From a virus, in the IMG/VR virus record IMGVR_UViG_3300021376_000281, positions 1 through 27,793 of that record: a stretch of 27,793 nucleotides of DNA, one strand, 5' to 3'. Made by a program: the position numbers and the translations under genes. This document shows, piece after piece, positions 7,791 to 15,878 of this stretch; position 1 is the stretch's first letter, and every line of letters begins with the position of its first letter. Below the pieces are notes generated by a model, which saw nothing but the letters and a program-made list of their open reading frames with translations, did not search any database and was not told the DNA's origin.

Positions 7791-9671
7791 TTATAGGAAC
7801 GTCGATCTGCGACGTTTGATCTCTGTTTGCGGGGCTTTGCTGTTGCTTTGGGGGCTGGCCAGCACGCTTTGCGAGCCTTCGCCGTGCTCGTATTCCCACC
7901 GCTTGTCGTCCCAGCGGTCGGCACCCACCGCCATGCAGGCGGCCCGGTTGTAGATCCGGCAGTCGAGAGCCTCGTTGCGCTCGCGGGTCTTCTCCCATTG
8001 GAACTTCTGGTAGCCCCGCACGATGCGTGACACCAGCGCCTCGGCAGTCAGCTGGCGGAAGTATTCCTCACCGTGCTGTGGGAAGTGACACCAGCCGAAC
8101 GGCAGGCCATCTCCCAGGTTGGTGGGCAGCTTGCGGCGCAGCCAGCCGTAGAGCTCCGACTTCGCCACCGACACACCGACCGGCCACACCTTGACGCCAC
8201 CCCGCAGGCGCTTACCCCGGACCGTGACCTCCACCGTGCTGGGCTGGCTGATGATCGTGGCCTGCTGCTCGCGGCCCTTGACCGCCATCACCCGCAGGGC
8301 GGATTGCCCTTTGACCCAGCGGTAGACCTCCTGGGTGCGGTAGCCCGTGTCCACGGCGGTCATGCGGATCGGTACCGACAGGCCGTTGCCCCTGGGGTAC
8401 TCGTTGCGGATCGCCCGGCTGAGCAGCTCCCACACCTCGTCGCCAGCGGTGTCGCCCGGGATGATCTGGTAGTCGATCGACCAGCTCTCCAGGTTGCGGC
8501 CCCAGCCAACCACTTCCAGTTCGATGCGATCCTTTTGCACGTCGACGCCTGCGGTCAGGAATACCACCTCGTCGGGCACCTGGCCGATCACGTACTCCTC
8601 CCTGCGGTGATACAGCAGCTCCCAGTCCGGGGCTTCGCCCGTGTCGGCGTAGGTCAGCCCCAGGACCGTGTTCTGGAAAACCCGCATCGCCTCGTCGGAC
8701 TTCTTGGCCTGAATGCTCGACTCCACGCATTGCGCCCAGCTCCACCAGCCGAGCGGTGAGTAGAGCGAGCTGATGTGATAGCTGCGCCACTTGCCCTCCG
8801 GGTTCTGTGGCACCCACCGGCCCTGGGTCAGGATCTTGTTCTTGTGGTGCTCCTCGAACTGCTCACCGCAGTGGCAGCACTCGTAACGCACCGTCTCTGG
8901 CTGCCCCTCCTCCCATTTCATCTGCGGCCACACCAGCTGCTGATAGGTACCGCACAGGGGGCACGGCACCTCGAAGAACCGCATGTCCCCGTCCATGAAC
9001 TCACGCTCGATCCGGCTGCGCCCGGCCAGCGTGGGGGTGGAAACGTAGAAGACCTTGCGCCGGCTGAACGTGCGGGTGCGGGCTTCGGCCAGCGCACAGG
9101 GATCACCCTCCCCGTCCACATCGCCCGGGTAGGCGTCGGGCTCGTCAAGGAACAGGAACCGCACCGGCATCGAGCGCAGGCCGGCGGCGCTGTTGGCCCC
9201 GGCCATCACCACGACACCGCCCGGAAACTCCTTGGCCAGCAGGCTGTTGCCGCTGTCACGGCTCCTGGGGTCGCGCACCTTTTCACACAGGCTTGGGCTT
9301 TCTTCGATTAGCGGGGCGATGCGCGTCTTGCTGTTGCGCTTTGCCATTTCCACTGTTGGCTGCACCATGAGCATCGGCCCCGGACAGTTGTCGATCACGT
9401 AGCCCAGCCAGTTGTTCCCAGCCTCGGTGCCTCCCACCTGTGCCCCTTTCATAAACACCGTCTTCTCAACCGGGCTTGTAGCTGATAGGCAGTCCATGAT
9501 CTCGCGCAGGTACGGGGTGCGCTCTGTGCGCCAAGCTCCAGGCTCTGCGCTTGCCCGCTGACTGAGAAACCGATGCTTGTCGGCCCACTCGCTCACCGTC
9601 AGCAGCGGGTCGGGTCTGATTGCCCCTCGTGCCGTTTCCCAGATCAGTGCGTAGGAATCAGCGAGGGCCAC
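7791..9671 (-). CDS. terL: Terminase large subunit, GpA family
   Basis: A 626-residue packaging ATPase-nuclease. The Walker A-like segment is at residues 76-83 (GAQVGGTE), Walker B at 173-179 (LFLDEPD) and the coupling motif at 211-214 (STPT). A zinc ribbon is made by CPLC (237-240) and CCHC (265-268). The C-terminal nuclease opens with TAGVDVQKDRIELEVVGWG, whose Asp residues are metal-ligand candidates. These features are typical of Terminase_GpA. Translation likely starts at a GTG (9671), overlapping the small subunit by 14 bases. It packs DNA together with the portal and the small subunit. Confidence 0.95.
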   Translation of the reverse strand: MALADSYALIWETARGAIRPDPLLTVSEWADKHRFLSQRASAEPGAWRTERTPYLREIMDCLSATSPVEKTVFMKGAQVGGTEAGNNWLGYVIDNCPGPMLMVQPTVEMAKRNSKTRIAPLIEESPSLCEKVRDPRSRDSGNSLLAKEFPGGVVVMAGANSAAGLRSMPVRFLFLDEPDAYPGDVDGEGDPCALAEARTRTFSRRKVFYVSTPTLAGRSRIEREFMDGDMRFFEVPCPLCGTYQQLVWPQMKWEEGQPETVRYECCHCGEQFEEHHKNKILTQGRWVPQNPEGKWRSYHISSLYSPLGWWSWAQCVESSIQAKKSDEAMRVFQNTVLGLTYADTGEAPDWELLYHRREEYVIGQVPDEVVFLTAGVDVQKDRIELEVVGWGRNLESWSIDYQIIPGDTAGDEVWELLSRAIRNEYPRGNGLSVPIRMTAVDTGYRTQEVYRWVKGQSALRVMAVKGREQQATIISQPSTVEVTVRGKRLRGGVKVWPVGVSVAKSELYGWLRRKLPTNLGDGLPFGWCHFPQHGEEYFRQLTAEALVSRIVRGYQKFQWEKTRERNEALDCRIYNRAACMAVGADRWDDKRWEYEHGEGSQSVLASPQSNSKAPQTEIKRRRSTFL

Positions 9672-10218
9672 TGCTATCCGCGAGTTGTTCCAGTGCTCGG
9701 TTGATCTCGCGCTGCATGATCAGCATCATCTCGTGCCGTTTCTCTGGGGACACGTCGCCAACGACGGCCGCCAGCTCGTTGACGACCCTGATGGGAATGT
9801 TCTGCACAGCATCGCGGAACAGGCGAATGGTCTTAAACGTGGCGGTGCGCACATCATCGACGCGGCACAGCTGCTGTGCCTTTTCCCGATACTCGAGCTC
9901 CGCCATCTTGGCGGCAAACTGCTCCCGGATCGCCCGGGCCCTGCTGTAGTTGACCTCCACCGGCACAGCCTGGTCTTGCCCTGATGGCTTGAACGGCTTG
10001 CCCTGGGCGGCCGCCTTGCCGGCGTTGATCGCATCAGCTGGCCTGGCTTTGGTGGTCTGGGTGTTAATCGCCCACTCGCGGTCGGCCTTGTCGATGTCGA
10101 TCGCCGTCTGCCCAGCAACCTTGGAGATCGACTTGCTCAGTCGACCGTCCTTAATTGCTTTGCGCACCGCCTGGGGGCTCACCCCCCGGTATCTGGCGTA
10201 TTCGGTAACGCTTACCAA
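9658..10218 (-). CDS. terS: Terminase small subunit-like (HTH, DNA recognition)
   Basis: A 186-residue protein. Its N-terminus (VTEYARYRGVSPQAVRKAIKDGRL) is a winged-helix/HTH of the type used by Nu1-like small terminase subunits. A Lys/Ala-rich linker and a helical part (REQFAAKMAELEYREKAQQLCRVDDV) follow, then FKTIRLFRDAVQNIPIRV. This pattern is common in small subunits partnering GpA-type terminases. The only in-frame start near the N-terminus is TTG at 10218, which begins after the stop of the second phosphoribosyltransferase gene in the same frame; AGGG lies about 9 bases upstream. The gene overlaps terL. Confidence 0.8.
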   Translation of the reverse strand: MVSVTEYARYRGVSPQAVRKAIKDGRLSKSISKVAGQTAIDIDKADREWAINTQTTKARPADAINAGKAAAQGKPFKPSGQDQAVPVEVNYSRARAIREQFAAKMAELEYREKAQQLCRVDDVRTATFKTIRLFRDAVQNIPIRVVNELAAVVGDVSPEKRHEMMLIMQREINRALEQLADSSGPR

Positions 10219-10245: not shown

Positions 10246-10650
10246 TTAGTCGTGGAACCCAGACAAGAACGGCTCCCGACATTCCGTCGGTGCCTCCTGC
10301 CAGGGCATCACCACCATGGCGCACGCACCGTCGAGCTTTAGGACACTGGGCCAGCGGTGATCAGGTGATGCGTCAACCCAGGCCCATGCCTCCACCTCGT
10401 CCTCGGTGTTGGCGAGCCTTGTGAACTTGCTTTGCTCTGTGGCCACGGCATCGACCAGGAGCATCCCTGGCGTGGGGTGTTGCAGCAGTGGTAGCGACAG
10501 CCGGTCGCTTAGCGCCACTGCCAGCACGATCCCGGCGGCGCTGGAGCCGTACACCCCGCTGCGATCACGACGCACGCACTGCGCTGCGATTAGGTCGATT
10601 GCGGCATCAAAGCCCGCCCAGGTCAGAAACATTAGGGGCGGGCGTCGCAT
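10246..10650 (-). CDS. Degenerate phosphoribosyltransferase-like protein (paralogue of the 11290-11676 gene)
   Basis: A 134-residue protein clearly related to the other phosphoribosyltransferase of this island. Shared stretches include WxxFxxAI near the start, SGVYG, LAVALSxxLxLPLL and the ending VVMPWQE. The family PRPP loop is damaged: the paralogue has VDDIYETGRT, here residues 66-75 read VDAVATEQSK, losing the second acidic residue and the TG. The RGG motif is replaced by SAAG (37-40). Catalysis by the usual mechanism is therefore unlikely, and a regulatory or subunit role is possible. ATG 10650 overlaps the QueE stop (TAATG). A longer frame from 10764 runs inside queE and is not used. 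Confidence 0.7.
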   Translation of the reverse strand: MRRPPLMFLTWAGFDAAIDLIAAQCVRRDRSGVYGSSAAGIVLAVALSDRLSLPLLQHPTPGMLLVDAVATEQSKFTRLANTEDEVEAWAWVDASPDHRWPSVLKLDGACAMVVMPWQEAPTECREPFLSGFHD

Positions 10651-11306
10651 TAACGCACCCCGGCGTATTTGTGGGTCTGAATGCTTAGCCGCCAGCGGTG
10701 GGTCATGCACGCCTCGACGCACAGGCGTGTGGCCTCGTGGCCCTGGCTTACTGGCTGCAGCCACACGCTGGTGCGCTCCTGCTTGTGCACCAGCAGGGCC
10801 TCCAGGTTGTCAATGTCGGCCTTGCCGGTGACCGGCATCTTGATCTCGTCTGCGGCAGCGATCGCGCTGGGCAGCACGTCCAGGCCACCGCCCATGGCCA
10901 CCTTGGGACTTACGGTCACCCAGGTGCCTGGGGCAACCTTGATCTCGTGGGTGCCGCTGGTCTCAATCTGCACCGTTCCCATGGTCTGCAAATTGGCGGT
11001 CAGCAGCCAGATGTCCTGAGCGCATGGCTCACCGCCGGTGATCACGAAGTGCCGGGGGCTGTAGTGGCCCACGTTCTTCACGATCTGCTCGGCGCTCATC
11101 TCCGCCCAGGTCGGCGCAGAGTCTTGCTTGTCGAGCATCTCTACGATGCCGATGCGCTTGCTCTCCGCACCCGGGTGCCAGGTGTGCTTTGTGTCGCACC
11201 AGCTGCAGCCCACCGGGCAGCCTTGGAGCCTGATGAACGTGGCCGGTGTTCCGGTCCAGCACGCCTCCCCCTGAATGGTGGGAAAGATTTCATTCACGCG
11301 AAGCAC
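10650..11306 (-). CDS. queE: 7-carboxy-7-deazaguanine synthase QueE (radical SAM)
   Basis: A 218-residue radical SAM enzyme converting 6-carboxy-tetrahydropterin to 7-carboxy-7-deazaguanine, the third step of preQ0 synthesis. Seen: VNEIFPTIQGE at the N-terminus, typical of QueE; the cluster motif CxxxCxxC at C30, C34 and C37 (GCPVGCSWCDTKHTW); and HFVITGGEP for the GGE SAM-binding motif. GTG 11306 is preferred: AGGAGG (11313-11318) lies 6 bases upstream, giving the N-terminus usual for the family. An ATG at 11321 contains that same AGGAGG as its codons 2-3. The start overlaps the phosphoribosyltransferase gene by 17 bases. Together with FolE, QueD and QueC it makes a full preQ0 pathway. Confidence 0.93.
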   Translation of the reverse strand: MLRVNEIFPTIQGEACWTGTPATFIRLQGCPVGCSWCDTKHTWHPGAESKRIGIVEMLDKQDSAPTWAEMSAEQIVKNVGHYSPRHFVITGGEPCAQDIWLLTANLQTMGTVQIETSGTHEIKVAPGTWVTVSPKVAMGGGLDVLPSAIAAADEIKMPVTGKADIDNLEALLVHKQERTSVWLQPVSQGHEATRLCVEACMTHRWRLSIQTHKYAGVR

Positions 11307-11676
11307 GGTAAGCCTCCTCATCAGCAGCGGCCGCCTCGGGGTCTTCCCATGGGAAGACGATCCATTCGGGTGAATCGATCACCTCGACGGCTCGGAACCA
11401 TGTTGGCCGCACCTTGCTGATCCACACGACGGCTTCACAACCTGGAAGGCTCTTTAGCCGGGTCAGGGTGCGACCGGTCTCGTAGATGTCGTCAACGATC
11501 AACGAGTCTTCTTCCGGCTCTAGCAGCAACGGCAGCTCCAGGTGATGGCTCAACGCCACCGCCAGACACAGCCCACCACGCGGAAAGCCGTAGACGCCAT
11601 TGAACGCACGCCCATGGTGCTCGGCGCTGATCTTCCAGACCGCCTCTTCGAAGTCAGACCAGCTCAGCCGTCTCAT
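11290..11676 (-). CDS. Type I phosphoribosyltransferase
   Basis: A 128-residue protein with an intact PRPP-binding loop, SLIVDDIYETGRTL (residues 58-71), and an upstream GVYGFPRGGLCLAVALS segment in which RGG corresponds to the second PRPP-binding motif. The family (Pfam Pribosyltran) joins bases to PRPP. The short length resembles small gpt/xanthine-type enzymes. It lies between queD and queE with ATGA-type overlaps, so it is co-expressed with preQ0 synthesis. Its substrate is unknown: it might salvage guanine to feed GTP to FolE, or act on a deazaguanine base. A degenerate paralogue lies two genes downstream. Confidence 0.82.
   Translation of the reverse strand: MRRLSWSDFEEAVWKISAEHHGRAFNGVYGFPRGGLCLAVALSHHLELPLLLEPEEDSLIVDDIYETGRTLTRLKSLPGCEAVVWISKVRPTWFRAVEVIDSPEWIVFPWEDPEAAAADEEAYRASRE
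11313..11318 (-). promoter_or_regulatory. Shine-Dalgarno deciding the queE start
   Basis: AGGAGG on the minus strand, 6 bases before GTG 11306. It lies inside the end of the upstream gene and points to GTG 11306 rather than ATG 11321. Confidence 0.65.
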
Positions 11677-12122
11677 GGACGGTATATCGCGGAGTTCGCG
11701 CCATGCTCGCGCACCTCGACTTCAGCGACACGACAGCGCGGGGCGTAGCCCTTGTCCTCCAGCCAGGTGTTGGTGGTCGTCCACACCAGCTGCGCAAACC
11801 TCTCGCATCCGACCGCAGGCACAGTCACCAGGTCGATCACGCCACGGCGATGGGCCTCCCGAAACCAGCTGATTTCTGGGTCGTCATCTGCGACCACGGT
11901 CTTGTGATCGAACGTGGCCTGCAGCCACGCCTTGAGATCCTTCAGCCCCCCGAAGTCCACCACCCAGTTGCGCTCGTCGAGATCATCCGCTTCGAACTTC
12001 AGATGCACTGACAGGGCGTAGCCATGCAGGAACTGGCAGTGGCTGTGAGTGCTGCGCCACTGGCGGAAGCACGCACTCAGCCCAACGTCGTGCCCCCAGG
12101 TCTTCGTGGAGATGAACGTCAT
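11673..12122 (-). CDS. queD: 6-carboxytetrahydropterin synthase QueD, variant metal site
   Basis: A 149-residue member of the 6-pyruvoyltetrahydropterin synthase family, making 6-carboxy-tetrahydropterin from dihydroneopterin triphosphate. Landmarks are catalytic-type C29 before LHG (SHCQFLHGYALSV), DFGGLKDLKAWLQATFDHKTV with D72-H73 of the catalytic relay, and VREHGANSAIY with the terminal Glu (E139). Two usual zinc ligands look altered: the family HGH motif reads HGY (Y35), and the early AAH motif reads SACF. Extra His residues (H26, H28) lie just before the Cys. ATG 12122 overlaps folE (ATGA), and the stop overlaps the next start. The pathway context makes the role secure even with the altered site. 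Confidence 0.88.
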   Translation of the reverse strand: MTFISTKTWGHDVGLSACFRQWRSTHSHCQFLHGYALSVHLKFEADDLDERNWVVDFGGLKDLKAWLQATFDHKTVVADDDPEISWFREAHRRGVIDLVTVPAVGCERFAQLVWTTTNTWLEDKGYAPRCRVAEVEVREHGANSAIYRP

Positions 12123-12787
12123 TTGAGTCCAATCAGCTGTAAGAACTCAGCTTTCATGTGTGGTTTGTCGCGGAACTCGCCTCGAACGACGCTAGTCACC
12201 ATCGACGTGTTCGGCTCGCGCACGCCGCGCCATTTCATGCAGTAGTGCTGGGCGTCCACGATCACGATCAGACCCACAGGGTCCACTAGCCGTTCGATCT
12301 CGTCGGCCAGGATCATCACCGCCTCCTCCTGAATGTGGGGGCGTGAGAAGACCCACTCGGCCAGCCGGACGAACTTCGACAGGCCAATCACCCGGTCGCC
12401 CGGCTTGATGCCGACCCAGCACTTGCCGAGGATCGGCACCAGGTGGTGGCTGCAGGCGCTGCGCACCGTGATCGGGCCCACGCTGTAGACCTGGTCCAGG
12501 TCCTTGACGTTGGGGAAGTCGGTCAACCGGGGGGCCTGGTGGTAGCGCCCGGCGAACACCTCCTGCAGATACATGCGGGCCACGCGCTCGGCGGTGCCCC
12601 TGGTGTTGTGGTCGTTGTCCACGTCGATCACCAGGGAACGCAGGAGATCCTCCACGCGCTGTGCAACCTCGCCCTCCAGCAGGCTCAGCTCACCAGGCTC
12701 GATGAACTGTGCGATGTTGTCGTTGGCCAGGAACGATGCGCCGGCGGCCGACAGGCGTTGGCGGATGGCTTCAGACGTAGATGGCAT
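12119..12787 (-). CDS. folE: GTP cyclohydrolase I FolE
   Basis: A 222-residue type I GTP cyclohydrolase, the first step from GTP to dihydroneopterin triphosphate. Signatures: TRGTAERVARMYLQE (residues 62-76), SACSHHLVPILGKCWVGI with zinc ligands C112 and H115, VIGLSKFVRLAEWV, and AQHYCMKWRGV with the third ligand C183. The usual CEHH is CSHH here. In this island it supplies the pterin precursor for QueD rather than folate. ATG 12787 overlaps the preceding DUF6884-type gene by 17 bases. Confidence 0.95.
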   Translation of the reverse strand: MPSTSEAIRQRLSAAGASFLANDNIAQFIEPGELSLLEGEVAQRVEDLLRSLVIDVDNDHNTRGTAERVARMYLQEVFAGRYHQAPRLTDFPNVKDLDQVYSVGPITVRSACSHHLVPILGKCWVGIKPGDRVIGLSKFVRLAEWVFSRPHIQEEAVMILADEIERLVDPVGLIVIVDAQHYCMKWRGVREPNTSMVTSVVRGEFRDKPHMKAEFLQLIGLK

Positions 12788-13220
12788 ACAGGCTCTCTGG
12801 CAGCTTGCGGTGGTGGGTTTTGAACCAGTTTCTCTGGAACCCCATGCGTGTGCATGGGGTGTTCATGTGCTCAGTCAGCACCTCAAACTGGGGTAGCACC
12901 TGGACCAGCATTTTGCGGTAGGGCTTGCCGGTGTTGACCAGGAGCGGTCGTTCTTGATCGAGGCCCAGCTCGGTCACTTGTCGCGCCAGCTCTGGCACCG
13001 TGATCACCTGACTGGGGGTGCCCATCTTGGCCTCGTATGGGGCAATCACCTCCAGCGAGCTGACGAGCCCGTACTTCGCAGACAGGATGTAGATGGCCCG
13101 CAGGGGCACGATGGTTCGCGCCCAGTTGAACGCAAGAGTGAACTGGCTGCCGGTGTAGAGCTGCCACGCAGGAGCGGCGACACGGCCTTTCCCTGCGCCG
13201 CAGCCGAGGATGATCTTCAT
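12771..13220 (-). CDS. DUF6884-type protein, copy A
   Basis: A 149-residue protein of a family I recognise as DUF6884. Its conserved parts are ILGCGAGKGRVAAPAWQLYTGSQF (N-terminal Cys/Lys motif, residues 4-27), IYILSAKYGLV (about residues 44-54) and VIAPYEAKM (about 58-66), then VNTGKPYRKMLVQVLP. The function of the family is not established. The gene sits between a second DUF6884-type gene and folE inside the preQ0/DpdA island, six bases after the previous stop and overlapping folE. GAGG lies 5 bases before ATG 13220. Lying among these genes suggests a role in deazaguanine DNA modification. I infer, without proof, a remote relation to YaaA- or ArcS-type domains because of the C-x2-K ... Y-x-S/G-x-x-F pattern. 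Confidence 0.7.
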   Translation of the reverse strand: MKIILGCGAGKGRVAAPAWQLYTGSQFTLAFNWARTIVPLRAIYILSAKYGLVSSLEVIAPYEAKMGTPSQVITVPELARQVTELGLDQERPLLVNTGKPYRKMLVQVLPQFEVLTEHMNTPCTRMGFQRNWFKTHHRKLPESLYAIYV

Positions 13221-13226
13221 GTGGCC

Positions 13227-13805
13227 TCATGTTGAGAAAGCGTAGAAGACGCGTCCATTAGCGACACGGGCAAATGGCGATTTGAGAAGACGCGAGAATT
13301 GTGCGCGTCTTGTTGAAGGGCTAGTCCAGGTATCAATACAGAACTTCTGAAAGTCCCTTACCGATGCGCCTGAGTTTTGATAGAGCCAGACTAAAGACGC
13401 TCTAAGCGGAAAGACGTTTCCCTTCACCGATCCTCTATTGCCCAGCGCCTTGGCTTTTTCGTAAATGCCGCCACTAGCAGCGACGCGAAACTCTACCAGC
13501 CGCAATGCCTTGTTGTAGTCACTTGGACAATAGGAGATCACTTCACAATCTCCAATCGCCTGAATTGCCTGCTGAATCTCTTCTGCAAGCCCTGGTCTGT
13601 CAGGGGTGATTCTCTGGTCGTAAGGCGCAATCACTTTACGTGGGTCGATAAGGCCATGGCGACCGGAAAGAATCCGAACTACGTCGCAGTCTTGCTTGGC
13701 CGCCAAAAAGTTTTGACTAAAAGTTGGACTCGCAGAGTAAAGCAGCCACGCAGGGCATGGCGTGGGCATCTTTTTTGACGAGCAAGCAACGATTCCAATC
13801 GTCAT
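13227..13805 (-). CDS. DUF6884-type protein, copy B with C-terminal extension
   Basis: A 192-residue paralogue of the next gene. Residues 1-115 hold the shared motifs: IVACSSKKMPTPCPAWLLYS, VRILSGRHGLID and VIAPYDQRI, then a segment matching VNTG...Y (VISYCPSDYNKAL). A C-terminal part of about 75 residues (SLVWLYQNSGASVRDFQKFCID, then SRLLKSPFARVANGRVFYAF) is absent from copy A and could be a small helical nucleic-acid binding domain. Base composition differs from the neighbours: eight rows counted by hand give about 51% G+C against about 65% in a folE row, a sign of separate acquisition. ATG 13805 overlaps the queC stop (ATGA). Function unknown; see the findings. Confidence 0.7.
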   Translation of the reverse strand: MTIGIVACSSKKMPTPCPAWLLYSASPTFSQNFLAAKQDCDVVRILSGRHGLIDPRKVIAPYDQRITPDRPGLAEEIQQAIQAIGDCEVISYCPSDYNKALRLVEFRVAASGGIYEKAKALGNRGSVKGNVFPLRASLVWLYQNSGASVRDFQKFCIDTWTSPSTRRAQFSRLLKSPFARVANGRVFYAFST

Positions 13806-14467
13806 GCGCGGTACTGCGTGGGATCAGGCACCCCGCTGTCGCGGAACGCTTCTTTGCGCTCGGTGCAGGCACCGCACTGACCGCAGTGAATGTCTCCGCC
13901 CTCGTAGCAGGTCCAGGTGTGCTCGAAGGGTACGCCGAGCGTCCCACCTATGGCTGCGATGTCGGTCTTGGTGTGATGCACGAAGGGTGCGATCAGCTCG
14001 AGGCTGTCCTTGCGGTGGCCCACCGTGCCGATGCGCATGCTCTCGTTTAGCGAGGCGATGAACTCGGGGCGGCAGTCGGGGTAGATGAAGTGATCCCCAG
14101 CGTGCACGCCGCAGGCCAGTACTTCCGCACCGTCGCTGCAGGCCAGGCCCCAGGCGATCGACAGCATGATCGCATTGCGGTTAGGCACCACGGTGGCCCG
14201 CATCGTCTCCTCGGCGTAGTGGCCATGGGGCACCGCCACGTCGTCGGTCAGCGCCGAGCCCTTGAGCAGGGGGCGGATCCCGCTGATGTCGATGATCGTG
14301 TGCTCAGCGCCCAGGTGCTCCGCCTGCCATGCCGCGCACTGCAGCTCCCGGCTGTGGCGCTGCCCGTAGTCGAAGGAGATCAGGTGGAGCTCGGGGTAGA
14401 CCCCCTTGAGCCAGTGGGCCAGCGTCACGCTGTCCATCCCGCCGGAGACAATGGCGACTGCTTTCAT
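13802..14467 (-). CDS. queC: 7-cyano-7-deazaguanine (preQ0) synthase QueC
   Basis: A 221-residue ATP-dependent PP-loop enzyme that turns 7-carboxy-7-deazaguanine into preQ0. The PP-loop motif SGGMDS is at residues 8-13, and SFDYGQRHSRELQCA follows at 31-45 as in the family. The four zinc-binding Cys are C187, C195, C198 and C201 (TCYEGGDIHCGQCGAC). VVPNRNAIMLSIA is also typical. ATG 14467 overlaps the dpdA stop (ATGA). A longer frame to 14638 runs inside dpdA and is rejected. No fused Gat domain and no nearby QueF-like gene are seen, so preQ0 itself, or a product of the adjacent unknown genes, is the likely modifying base. Confidence 0.95.
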   Translation of the reverse strand: MKAVAIVSGGMDSVTLAHWLKGVYPELHLISFDYGQRHSRELQCAAWQAEHLGAEHTIIDISGIRPLLKGSALTDDVAVPHGHYAEETMRATVVPNRNAIMLSIAWGLACSDGAEVLACGVHAGDHFIYPDCRPEFIASLNESMRIGTVGHRKDSLELIAPFVHHTKTDIAAIGGTLGVPFEHTWTCYEGGDIHCGQCGACTERKEAFRDSGVPDPTQYRA

Positions 14468-15294
14468 GGTGCGGTCCTGAGGTAAAGATCGGTGAAACCC
14501 TGCACCAGCAGACCCAGGGCCTGGGCGGTGGTTAGGGCGAGGAACATCTTGGTTCCGGTCTGGCGTTCCACATCCACCGACAGCGCCACCCCACTGCGAG
14601 CACAGAGGGTGCGTGATGCCGATGGGCCGCCGTGCCATTCATCCAGCTTCGCCAGCCGGAAGGGATCGACGCCCAGCTGCCGGATCCGATCGAGCACCGC
14701 CTGCGGTGGCCGGTCCTGGAACTGCGGCTTCTTGATAGTGAGGAACTTCGCGTTGCCCATGTAGAGCTTCAGCGCCCCGTATCTTGCCCCCGACTCCCAG
14801 GTGCTGCTGTCACACATGAACGGTCTGTAGACCTTGATGAAGTCCAGGTCGGTGAAGCCCAGCCAGTGCACCATGCGATCACCGACGTGGCGCATGATCC
14901 CCTTGACAAAGCCACGGTTGCCCGGGGTGCCCACCAGCCCCCCGATGCCCACCACGTCGCTGGTCTTGTAGAACTCCTCAAGCACCGTGGGGTCCTCGCC
15001 CCTGGTGAAGATCGGCACCGGCTTGAAGCCCCGGGCCAGCATCGTTTCGTAGTTGTGCATCGTGCCCTCCGGGTCGCCGATCACGTCCAGGGTGAAGTAA
15101 CGCCAGGGCTTGATCGGCAGCCCCTCGAGGAACCGGCAGTAGTCGTCGAGCTGAATCGGCTTGCCGGCTTTCCATGCCGTGAACGCACCAGAGTCGAGCA
15201 CGAAGCGGAGCGATGGCCCCACCACCCGCAGGCTCTCGATCACCTGGGGGTTCATGTACGGGTAGGCGACCAGGACGTTGAGCCTGGGCTCCAT
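14464..15294 (-). CDS. dpdA: DpdA-like DNA guanine transglycosylase (preQ0 insertion)
   Basis: A 276-residue TGT-fold protein of the phage DpdA type. FVLDSGAFTAWKAG (D34) matches the TGT 'DSGGFQ' acid/base motif. RYFTLDVIGDPEG (D70) matches the base-binding Asp, GIGGLVGTPGNRG (116-128) the glycine loop, and HWLGFTDLDF ... MCDSSTWESG, with D162, is the candidate nucleophile. The C-terminal zinc site of tRNA TGTs is not seen, which fits DpdA rather than Tgt. It would exchange guanine in DNA for preQ0. ATG 15294 is preceded by GGAGG 7 bases upstream and overlaps the previous stop (TGATG). It lies beside queC and a ParB-domain gene, a typical DpdA setting. Confidence 0.85.
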   Translation of the reverse strand: MEPRLNVLVAYPYMNPQVIESLRVVGPSLRFVLDSGAFTAWKAGKPIQLDDYCRFLEGLPIKPWRYFTLDVIGDPEGTMHNYETMLARGFKPVPIFTRGEDPTVLEEFYKTSDVVGIGGLVGTPGNRGFVKGIMRHVGDRMVHWLGFTDLDFIKVYRPFMCDSSTWESGARYGALKLYMGNAKFLTIKKPQFQDRPPQAVLDRIRQLGVDPFRLAKLDEWHGGPSASRTLCARSGVALSVDVERQTGTKMFLALTTAQALGLLVQGFTDLYLRTAP

Positions 15295-15878
15295 CAGCTG
15301 ACCTCCACGCTGATGGCGTGGCCGTCGCAATACATGCGAATGGCCTCCACCACCTCGTCGCGGTAGGTGCCGTCGAGCTTCACCACGATCTTGGCGCTGA
15401 TGCCGTCAAAGTTCTCCTCGTGCTTCTCGATCGCCTCGATGTCGCTTGCCCAGCCATCAGCGCCCAGGCCCTCGATCTCGGCGTCGCTGAAGCCCAGCAA
15501 GCTGATGTCAAAGTCAAGCTCGGTCAGGCCCTGGATCTCCTCGTTCAGCAGGTTGACATCCCACCCTGCGTTCAGGGCCAGCTTGTTGTCGGCGATCACG
15601 TAGGCCCGCTTCTGCGCAGGGCTCAGGTGATCGAGCACCACCACCGGCACCTCCTCCAGGCCCAGCTCCCGGGCCGCGGCCAGCCGGCCATGCCCCGCGA
15701 TCACCCCGGCGGCGGTGTCTACCAGGATCGGGTTCACGAAGCCAAACTCCACGATCGACCCAGCCAGCTGAGCCACCTGCTCAGGTGAGTGGGTGCGGGC
15801 GTTGCGCTCGTAGGGCACCAGCTTGTCGATCGGCCAGACCTCGATGCGGTTGGCCATGGCTGGGGTCAGCCGGGTCAT
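15294..15878 (-). CDS. ParB/sulfiredoxin-domain protein, possible DpdA partner
   Basis: A 194-residue protein. Residues 10-100 form a ParB/Srx domain: IEVWPIDKLVPYERNARTH, then QLAGSIVEFGFVNPILVD, then the phosphate-binding GHGRLAAARELG (62-73) and LDHLSPAQKRAYVIADNKL. Residues about 125-138 (ISLLGFSDAEIEGL) match the linker often seen in ParB-domain proteins tied to DNA modification enzymes, followed by a short C-terminal ferredoxin-like part (IVVKLDGTYRDEVVEAIRM). DpdB, the ATPase partner of DpdA in bacterial dpd clusters, is reported to carry a ParB-like fold, so a similar role is an inference. ATG 15878 is used; an internal ATG at 15857 is an alternative, and neither has a strong ribosome binding site. 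Confidence 0.78.
   Translation of the reverse strand: MTRLTPAMANRIEVWPIDKLVPYERNARTHSPEQVAQLAGSIVEFGFVNPILVDTAAGVIAGHGRLAAARELGLEEVPVVVLDHLSPAQKRAYVIADNKLALNAGWDVNLLNEEIQGLTELDFDISLLGFSDAEIEGLGADGWASDIEAIEKHEENFDGISAKIVVKLDGTYRDEVVEAIRMYCDGHAISVEVS

What the first reader, a model, noticed from the sequence alone, without database searches (positions are those of the whole stretch)
10246..15878. Complete preQ0 synthesis and DpdA-type DNA modification island inside the phage late operon
FolE, QueD, QueE and QueC form a full GTP-to-preQ0 route, and a DpdA-like TGT-fold protein lacking the tRNA-TGT zinc site lies beside them with a ParB-domain protein. All are joined by short overlaps and lead into the terminase genes. 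Known dpd/phage systems put deazaguanines into DNA and protect against restriction (established knowledge). Here the set is joined with four uncommon members: two DUF6884-type proteins and two phosphoribosyltransferase-like proteins. The final base may therefore be preQ0 or a new derivative.
Basis: partly seen in the sequence, partly recalled or inferred. Interest (0 to 1): 0.82.

Follow-up and report, generated by a model that had tools for sequence, protein, structure and literature searches.

The report
Phage guanine-replacement genes with guanine recycler
This virus fragment carries a complete gene set for swapping guanines in its DNA for a modified base, together with an enzyme that probably recycles the guanine thrown out by the swap, a partner that recurs in many unrelated viruses and seems to have been overlooked.

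Summary
On the minus strand, 10246-15878 holds ParB, DpdA-like, QueC, two DUF6884 proteins, FolE, QueD, a phosphoribosyltransferase (PRT1), QueE and a PRT-like protein (PRT2), mostly with short overlaps, directly upstream of TerS and TerL. The core is a known kind: Rosebush-genus phages share its layout, and the DpdA profile matches the genetically proven CAjan DpdA (99.6%). The two extras are what is interesting. PRT1 is a predicted guanine/xanthine-type PRT with intact motifs. Relatives recur in 32 of 71 viral DpdA plus preQ0 clusters. Of 80 loci found through PRT, 71 carry preQ0 genes, across several DpdA types. In Pseudomonas, Vibrio and Stenotrophomonas phages it is fused to FolE. I propose it recycles the guanine that DpdA expels into GMP/GTP, which feeds FolE. 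It is unlikely to make a new base. DUF6884 contains bacterial DpdC, which turns preQ0 in DNA into the amide dADG. Here it occurs only in clusters with QueC and mostly just after it, so the final base is more probably dADG than plain dPreQ0. PRT2 has lost its active site but is under purifying selection. All function is inferred from sequence; nothing biochemical was tested.

The parts
15294..15878 (-). ParB_N-domain protein (194 aa), almost always next to DpdA; like the N-terminal ParB domain of phage DNA methyltransferases
   Evidence: PF02195 5e-8; phrog_498/620 ~1e-55; ParB found in 70 of 71 DpdA + preQ0 clusters
14464..15294 (-). DpdA-like DNA guanine transglycosylase (276 aa from ATG 15294; the listed TTG start at 15330 is probably too long)
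   Evidence: phrog_887 1e-26; hhalign to CAjan DpdA 99.6%, E 9e-25, to Rosebush-genus DpdA 99.4%; D46, D174 and H155 (numbered from the TTG start) invariant in 56 sequences; AF2 pLDDT 94, nearest BFVD entries include phage 'queuine tRNA-ribosyltransferases'
13802..14467 (-). QueC (7-cyano-7-deazaguanine synthase), real start probably ATG 14467
   Evidence: PF06508 9e-64; TIGR00364 194.8 bits, cut-off 150.3; start codon context
13227..13805 (-). DUF6884-b (192 aa): CxxxK and LSGRHG motifs, C-terminal extension
   Evidence: PF21818 9e-16; alignment A5; no DpdC model matches it
12771..13220 (-). DUF6884-a (149 aa): CxxxK and LSAxxG motifs; distant DpdC/YaaA relative
   Evidence: PF21818 3e-16, YaaA 6e-4; PADLOC DpdC 1e-4; dN/dS 0.19 against L014
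12119..12787 (-). FolE (GTP cyclohydrolase I)
   Evidence: PF01227 7e-43
11673..12122 (-). QueD
   Evidence: PF01242 4e-17; phrog_2389 1e-44
11290..11676 (-). PRT1: purine (guanine/xanthine-type) phosphoribosyltransferase, 128 aa, motifs intact (RGG, VDDIYETGRT, WIVFPWE)
   Evidence: hmmsearch PDB 1vdm 3e-14; AF2 pLDDT 94.5, Foldseek prob 1.00 to purine PRT, XGPRT, HGXPRT; dN/dS 0.22-0.31 by NG86
10650..11321 (-). QueE (radical SAM)
   Evidence: TIGR04322 268 bits, cut-off 200; phrog_2076 1e-41
10246..10650 (-). PRT2: degenerate paralogue of PRT1 (RGG to AAG, DD to DA, TG to TE); predicted pseudo-enzyme; start probably ATG 10650
   Evidence: tblastn PRT1-PRT2 34% identity; alignment; dN/dS 0.27 against L008; three-member fast-evolving offshoot in the tree
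9658..10218 (-). TerS, next gene downstream (context, not part of the system)
   Evidence: phrog_57 3e-26
7791..9671 (-). TerL (context)
   Evidence: phrog_15 1e-258

Best explanation
A phage 7-deazaguanine DNA-modification operon with two add-ons. FolE, QueD, QueE and QueC make preQ0 from GTP. DpdA, probably helped by its ParB partner for DNA access or targeting, exchanges guanine in phage DNA for preQ0 and releases free guanine. PRT1 converts that guanine with PRPP to GMP. This keeps the exchange moving and returns one purine for every GTP that FolE spends. The DUF6884 proteins act after insertion, on the nitrile of dPreQ0 in DNA, most simply hydrating it to the amide dADG as bacterial DpdC does. 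PRT2 is an inactive PRT paralogue kept perhaps as a partner or regulator of PRT1. The product protects phage DNA from host restriction. What the evidence covers: gene content, homology, gene linkage and the PRT-FolE fusion in relatives are shown. Base insertion by this DpdA, guanine as PRT1's substrate, nitrile hydration by DUF6884, and protection are inferred.
For: CORE: families and gene order. DpdA profile match to CAjan DpdA, whose deletion abolishes modification (PMC6884629; match). Same layout (regulator, DpdA, QueC, QueD, QueE, FolE, terminase) in the Rosebush-genus phage Arbiter; Rosebush has ~28% of its G as dPreQ0 (PMC6884629). PRT1: closest solved folds are purine/xanthine-guanine PRTs. 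Present in 32 of 71 DpdA-anchored preQ0 clusters, always on the same strand, mostly between QueD and QueE (53 cases over both locus sets) but also in other orders. 71 of 80 PRT-anchored loci hold preQ0 genes, and 56 of those 71 a DpdA, of several sequence types. Fused to FolE in ten IMG/VR loci, Vibrio VpKK5, a Stenotrophomonas phage and Pseudomonas PaMx25. Kept in QueC-less clusters, so not tied to preQ0 itself. Chromosomal relatives in picocyanobacteria stand away from preQ0 genes apart from an occasional lone FolE; in one freshwater genome the next gene is a nucleoside 2-deoxyribosyltransferase. That suits ordinary purine salvage. DUF6884: DpdC is cited as a DUF6884 protein (PMC11888242); weak direct match to DpdC models, 1e-4 here and 5e-6 in L131. 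17 DpdA loci carry it, most right after QueC; all 17 have QueC and none of 12 QueC-less clusters has it (Fisher one-sided p = 0.027, not corrected for relatedness). None co-occurs with QueF or with the methyltransferase variant.
Against: Phages measured to hold dADG (Salmonella 7-11, Pantoea MED16, Campylobacter CP220) have no PF21818 match, so DUF6884 is not the only route to dADG. DUF6884-b has no match to DpdC models; the DpdC match of DUF6884-a is weak and partial. Streptomyces TubE is a PRT that uses the 7-deaza base CDG and not 7-deazaguanine (PMC6112128), so a PRT beside deazapurine genes can take the modified base instead. 39 of 71 DpdA clusters lack PRT, so salvage is not essential; the host enzyme may suffice. 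DpdA had no significant PDB match by sequence or fold: Foldseek listed no TGT among its best 50, and hhalign to E. coli TGT aligned only a 16-residue DSG motif.
Confidence: 0.62

Rival explanations
1. PRT1 acts on the 7-deaza base (preQ0 or CDG), making a ribonucleotide that is reduced and fed to the DNA polymerase or used as a signal, as TubE does with CDG in tubercidin synthesis.
For: TubE is a CDG-specific PRT in a preQ0-like gene cluster (PMC6112128). PRT sits among Que genes. The Asp of the D-T/S-G motif, which in XGPRT faces N7 (established knowledge), is Glu in the window clade. The L076-type cluster continues into a nucleotide pyrophosphohydrolase and a DNA polymerase gene.
Against: DpdA, which needs only the free base, is present in 56 of 71 PRT + preQ0 loci, and most of the others are short or cut contigs. 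Chromosomal picocyanobacterial PRTs without a nearby preQ0 cluster show the same D/E variation. PRT fuses to the GTP-consuming first enzyme, not to the enzymes that make the base.
Confidence: 0.2
2. The DUF6884 proteins do not tailor the base; they bind or process modified, mismatched or abasic DNA left by DpdA (a repair or quality-control role), so the final base is plain dPreQ0.
For: DUF6884/YaaA proteins have a positively charged DNA-binding cleft, and B. subtilis YfjM was found among interactors of abasic and RNA lesions (PMC11701544). dADG phages lack PF21818. Most QueC-containing clusters do without it.
Against: [quoted passage not shown] Montevideo (PMC11888242). The family is restricted to QueC-containing clusters, mostly right behind QueC. 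An invariant Cys and Lys fit nitrile chemistry.
Confidence: 0.3
3. The cluster boosts queuosine precursors for tRNA rather than modifying DNA.
For: preQ0 is a shared precursor; phages with preQ0 genes and no DpdA have been proposed to do this (PMC6884629).
Against: A DpdA is present, with 30% identity to the DNA-specific CAjan enzyme, in a ParB-DpdA unit found in 70 of 71 clusters. No QueA, QueG or QueF was found among the window genes scanned.
Confidence: 0.04

Closest known systems
Rosebush/CAjan-type phage dPreQ0 systems (DpdA with FolE, QueD, QueE, QueC; Hutinet 2019 group 2)
   Same: DpdA homologous to CAjan and Rosebush-genus DpdA; all four preQ0 genes; no amidotransferase or QueF; in the Rosebush genus the layout (regulator gene, DpdA, QueC and the other preQ0 genes, terminase) is shared.
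   Different: Two DUF6884 proteins, an intact purine PRT and a degenerate PRT inserted in the operon; DpdA itself is only ~30% identical; Arbiter's first gene has no Pfam ParB match and only weak similarity to the window ParB.
Bacterial Dpd island (DpdA-DpdB-DpdC, dADG)
   Same: DpdA; a DpdC-family (DUF6884) protein; a ParB-like partner (DpdB is described as a ParB-like ATPase, PMC12839542).
   Different: The window ParB matches no DpdB model and DUF6884-b no DpdC model; no restriction genes dpdD-K seen; preQ0 genes are in the cluster.
Queuovirinae clusters (Pseudomonas PaMx25, Vibrio VpKK5) and Flavobacterium phage immuto
   Same: preQ0 genes, DpdA and the same PRT family; PRT fused to FolE in PaMx25, VpKK5 and a Stenotrophomonas phage.
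   Different: Different DpdA, no DUF6884 annotated in the cluster, and in the fusions the PRT domain is annotated only as part of 'GTP cyclohydrolase' or missed.
E. coli XGPRT / archaeal purine PRT (1vdm, HGXPRT)
   Same: Fold, PRPP loop, base-stacking Trp motif.
   Different: Only 128 aa, about 16-26% identity in the fold matches, phage-encoded beside DpdA; substrate untested.

Membership tests
Phage DpdA (DNA guanine transglycosylase) | Sequence homology to an experimentally proven DpdA | tested here: met
   hhalign 99.6%, E 9e-25, 30% identity to CAjan DpdA
Phage DpdA (DNA guanine transglycosylase) | Catalytic Asp residues of the TGT site | tested here: met
   D46 (DSGAF, aligned with DSGGF of E. 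coli TGT) and D174 (CDSS, aligned with CAjan) invariant in 56 relatives
Phage DpdA (DNA guanine transglycosylase) | TGT fold shown by comparison with solved TGT structures | tested here: inconclusive
   Confident model (pLDDT 94), but no significant PDB match; viral library returns annotated phage TGT/DpdA
Phage DpdA (DNA guanine transglycosylase) | 7-deazaguanine in virion DNA | not testable with these tools
   Needs mass spectrometry; uncultured virus fragment
preQ0 synthesis pathway | FolE, QueD, QueE and QueC all present | tested here: met
DpdC (dPreQ0 to dADG) | Belongs to DUF6884 with CxxxK and SAxxG motifs | tested here: met
   for DUF6884-b the second motif reads SGRHG
DpdC (dPreQ0 to dADG) | Direct match to DpdC models | tested here: inconclusive
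   DUF6884-a 1e-4 over ~55 residues; DUF6884-b none; both match PDC-M57A better
DpdC (dPreQ0 to dADG) | dADG formation | not testable with these tools
   dADG phages lack PF21818, so no support from measured phages
6-oxopurine (xanthine/guanine) PRT | PRT fold with PRPP loop and base-binding hood motif (PRT1) | tested here: met
   alignment A3
6-oxopurine (xanthine/guanine) PRT | Same active-site motifs in PRT2 | tested here: not met
   RGG, DD and TG lost
6-oxopurine (xanthine/guanine) PRT | Activity on guanine with PRPP | not testable with these tools
   Needs an enzyme assay

The most novel reading that the evidence does not exclude
Viral DpdA systems commonly carry their own purine-recycling enzyme, coupled to or fused with FolE, so that base exchange in DNA is a closed guanine cycle (GTP to preQ0, guanine out, guanine back to GTP). 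This would be an undescribed functional module of 7-deazaguanine DNA modification, in the window's lineage sharing ancestry with a picocyanobacterial-type gene and later duplicated into an active/inactive pair.
Probability: 0.5. Interest if true: 0.7.

Novelty: new variant of a known kind. Interest (0 to 1): 0.58.

Why it matters
DpdA releases one guanine for each base it inserts, and the pathway burns one GTP for each preQ0. By a rough estimate from the published ~28-32% of G replaced, this could approach the size of a cell's GTP pool in an infection (inference, not computed here). A dedicated recycler would explain how phages afford such heavy replacement, and gives a direct test: remove the PRT domain and measure the degree of modification. 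The DUF6884 link offers a candidate for a phage enzyme that makes dADG, a step left unassigned in the literature read here (PMC6884629, PMC8306585).

Tried and rejected
PRT as a pre-replicative nucleotide route in clusters that seemed to lack DpdA: rejected, because those loci hold a divergent immuto-type DpdA that my first profile and a PHROG search missed. dADG phages as positive controls for DUF6884: all negative, so no correlation could be claimed. Microbacterium phage Megan gp6, in the QueC-QueD slot, as an isolated DUF6884 case: not DUF6884. Host by DpdA prophage search in 400 genomes of the family of a Vulcanococcus genome: nothing found (no positive control), so the host stays unknown; a picocyanobacterium is only hinted at by the PRT1 tree. 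PRT1 with tblastn against isolated phages: no match from the window sequence; relatives appeared only with more divergent family members. ParB as DpdB: no DpdB match. Literature: a 2023 paper on further DpdA subfamilies and tailoring enzymes that I know of is not held, so I cannot exclude that PRT or DUF6884 is mentioned there.
Full report
WHAT IS THERE. The window is a 27.8-kb uncultured virus record. From 15878 down to 10246 on the minus strand lie ParB, DpdA-like, QueC, DUF6884-b, DUF6884-a, FolE, QueD, PRT1, QueE and PRT2, followed by TerS and TerL. Start codons chosen from context give tight joints: the ParB stop and DpdA ATG share a base at 15294, the QueC ATG at 14467 overlaps the DpdA stop, and the PRT2 ATG at 10650 shares a base with the QueE stop. 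The rest of the fragment is a tailed phage: baseplate, tail terminator, head decoration, head protease/capsid, portal, terminase, primase, helicase, exonuclease VIII and RecT.

IS IT REAL. A second contig (L002) is identical or nearly so over this stretch. Others, mostly at 60-90% protein identity, keep ParB-DpdA-QueC-FolE-QueD-PRT1-QueE-TerS-TerL (L003, L005, L006, L007). dN/dS by NG86 is 0.09-0.31 for the genes tested, including DUF6884-a (0.19) and PRT2 (0.27). These look like kept, working genes.

THE CORE IS A KNOWN KIND. The DpdA profile of 56 viral relatives aligns over 210 columns with CAjan DpdA (99.6%, 30% identity) and with Rosebush-genus Arbiter DpdA (99.4%). D46, D174 and H155 are invariant. 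Deleting CAjan dpdA abolishes modification, and CAjan and Rosebush DNA hold about 32% and 28% of G as dPreQ0 (PMC6884629). Arbiter has a regulator gene, DpdA, QueC, QueD, QueE and FolE in a row before its terminase. The AlphaFold model is confident, but it has no significant PDB match, so the TGT fold rests on sequence profiles and viral model matches.

PRT1 IS A RECURRENT PARTNER. Profiles built from the window proteins were run over 80 distinct DpdA-anchored IMG/VR loci (selected without reference to PRT) and 80 PRT-anchored loci. Of 71 DpdA loci with at least three preQ0 genes, 32 have PRT, 17 DUF6884, 70 ParB and 59 QueC. Of 80 PRT loci, 71 have preQ0 genes; 56 of these also have a DpdA, once a divergent immuto-type DpdA is counted, and most of the remaining 15 are short or cut contigs. 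PRT is never on the opposite strand and sits in several gene orders, so the linkage has probably been re-made more than once. In ten contigs it is one ORF with FolE. Vibrio VpKK5 and a Stenotrophomonas phage have the fusion as 'GTP cyclohydrolase' of 300 and 297 aa. In Pseudomonas PaMx25 the annotated folE start hides a 300-aa PRT-FolE ORF, and the annotated gp38 is the wrong frame. Flavobacterium phage immuto has a stand-alone PRT beside FolE, with DpdA close by. A search of the key paper's main text for 'phosphoribosyl' gave none, and no held paper has DpdA with phosphoribosyltransferase and phage.

WHAT PRT1 DOES. Its nearest solved relatives by sequence and fold are purine and xanthine-guanine PRTs. 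It keeps RGG, the PRPP loop and the W..FPWE motif, invariant or nearly so in 42 diverse relatives. In the tree it lies in a supported clade (99/97) with chromosomal PRTs of Prochlorococcus, Synechococcus and other cyanobacteria, which have no preQ0 cluster nearby, only an occasional lone FolE. Guanine is the one product common to every DpdA reaction whatever base is inserted. PRT's independence of QueC and of DpdA type, together with its fusion to FolE, makes guanine recycling the best reading (my confidence about 0.6 for this step). The serious rival is that it takes the deaza base, as TubE takes CDG (PMC6112128).

DUF6884. Bacterial DpdC is assigned to DUF6884 (PMC11888242) and is required for dADG in S. 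Montevideo. The family is a YaaA-like fold with CxxxK and LSAxxG motifs and a probable DNA-binding cleft (PMC11701544). The cluster proteins keep the invariant Cys and Lys. In viral clusters the family appears only where QueC is present (17 of 59 against 0 of 12; p = 0.027 without correction for relatedness), mostly directly behind it, and never with QueF or the methyltransferase variant. That fits an enzyme working on the nitrile. Against this, dADG phages 7-11, MED16 and CP220 have no DUF6884, and the direct DpdC match is weak. I put the DpdC-like role at about 0.5. The pair here (one close to the L014 protein, one with a C-terminal extension) may have split tasks; nothing decides this.

VERDICT. 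A new variant of a known kind: phage DpdA modification with an apparent guanine-recycling module and a DpdC-like tailoring step. The inference of a new base from the four extra genes is weaker than the simpler reading: dADG plus recycling.

Noticed in passing
L010:10380-12053 (and L032): QueE is interrupted by an in-frame intein-like insert with LAGLIDADG-like motifs, placed inside the radical-SAM cysteine motif (GCPW|C...|CDTKNTW).
   Followed up: partly
L096:1566-2144, L098:1533-2111, L114:1458-2039, L117:2112-2702; also L097, L116, L118, L145: Eight DpdA clusters lack QueC and carry a small methyltransferase-like protein (weak Pfam match in L098, none in L117); in the four positions checked it sits in the QueC slot. 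QueC is absent from the whole records. This may be a 7-carboxy-7-deazaguanine (possibly methyl-ester) DNA modification.
   Followed up: partly
L105, L107, L008:1086-2561, L016: Clusters with DpdA, FolE, QueD, QueE and PRT but no QueC anywhere in the record, predicting dCDG; L008 has a different DpdA type.
   Followed up: partly
L172:5890-6792 (Pseudomonas phage PaMx25): folE is annotated with too late a start; the true ORF is a PRT-FolE fusion and gp38 is a wrong-frame call.
   Followed up: yes
L179-L229: Prochlorococcus, Synechococcus and Cyanobium genomes carry a chromosomal relative (about 50-60% identity) of the phage PRT; in L204 the next gene is a nucleoside 2-deoxyribosyltransferase.
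   Followed up: partly
L008:145-1089: The ParB protein next to DpdA is longer (314 aa), with a C-terminal part that looks like a decayed DNA methyltransferase by eye; Pfam found only ParB_N.
   Followed up: partly
L076:8438-12900: Downstream of FolE-PRT lie a nucleotide pyrophosphohydrolase, a DNA polymerase, an aminotransferase and an unknown 323-aa protein.
   Followed up: no
window 7791-9671: TerL is most similar among isolated phages to Wolbachia phage WO TerL (about 56-60% identity).
   Followed up: no
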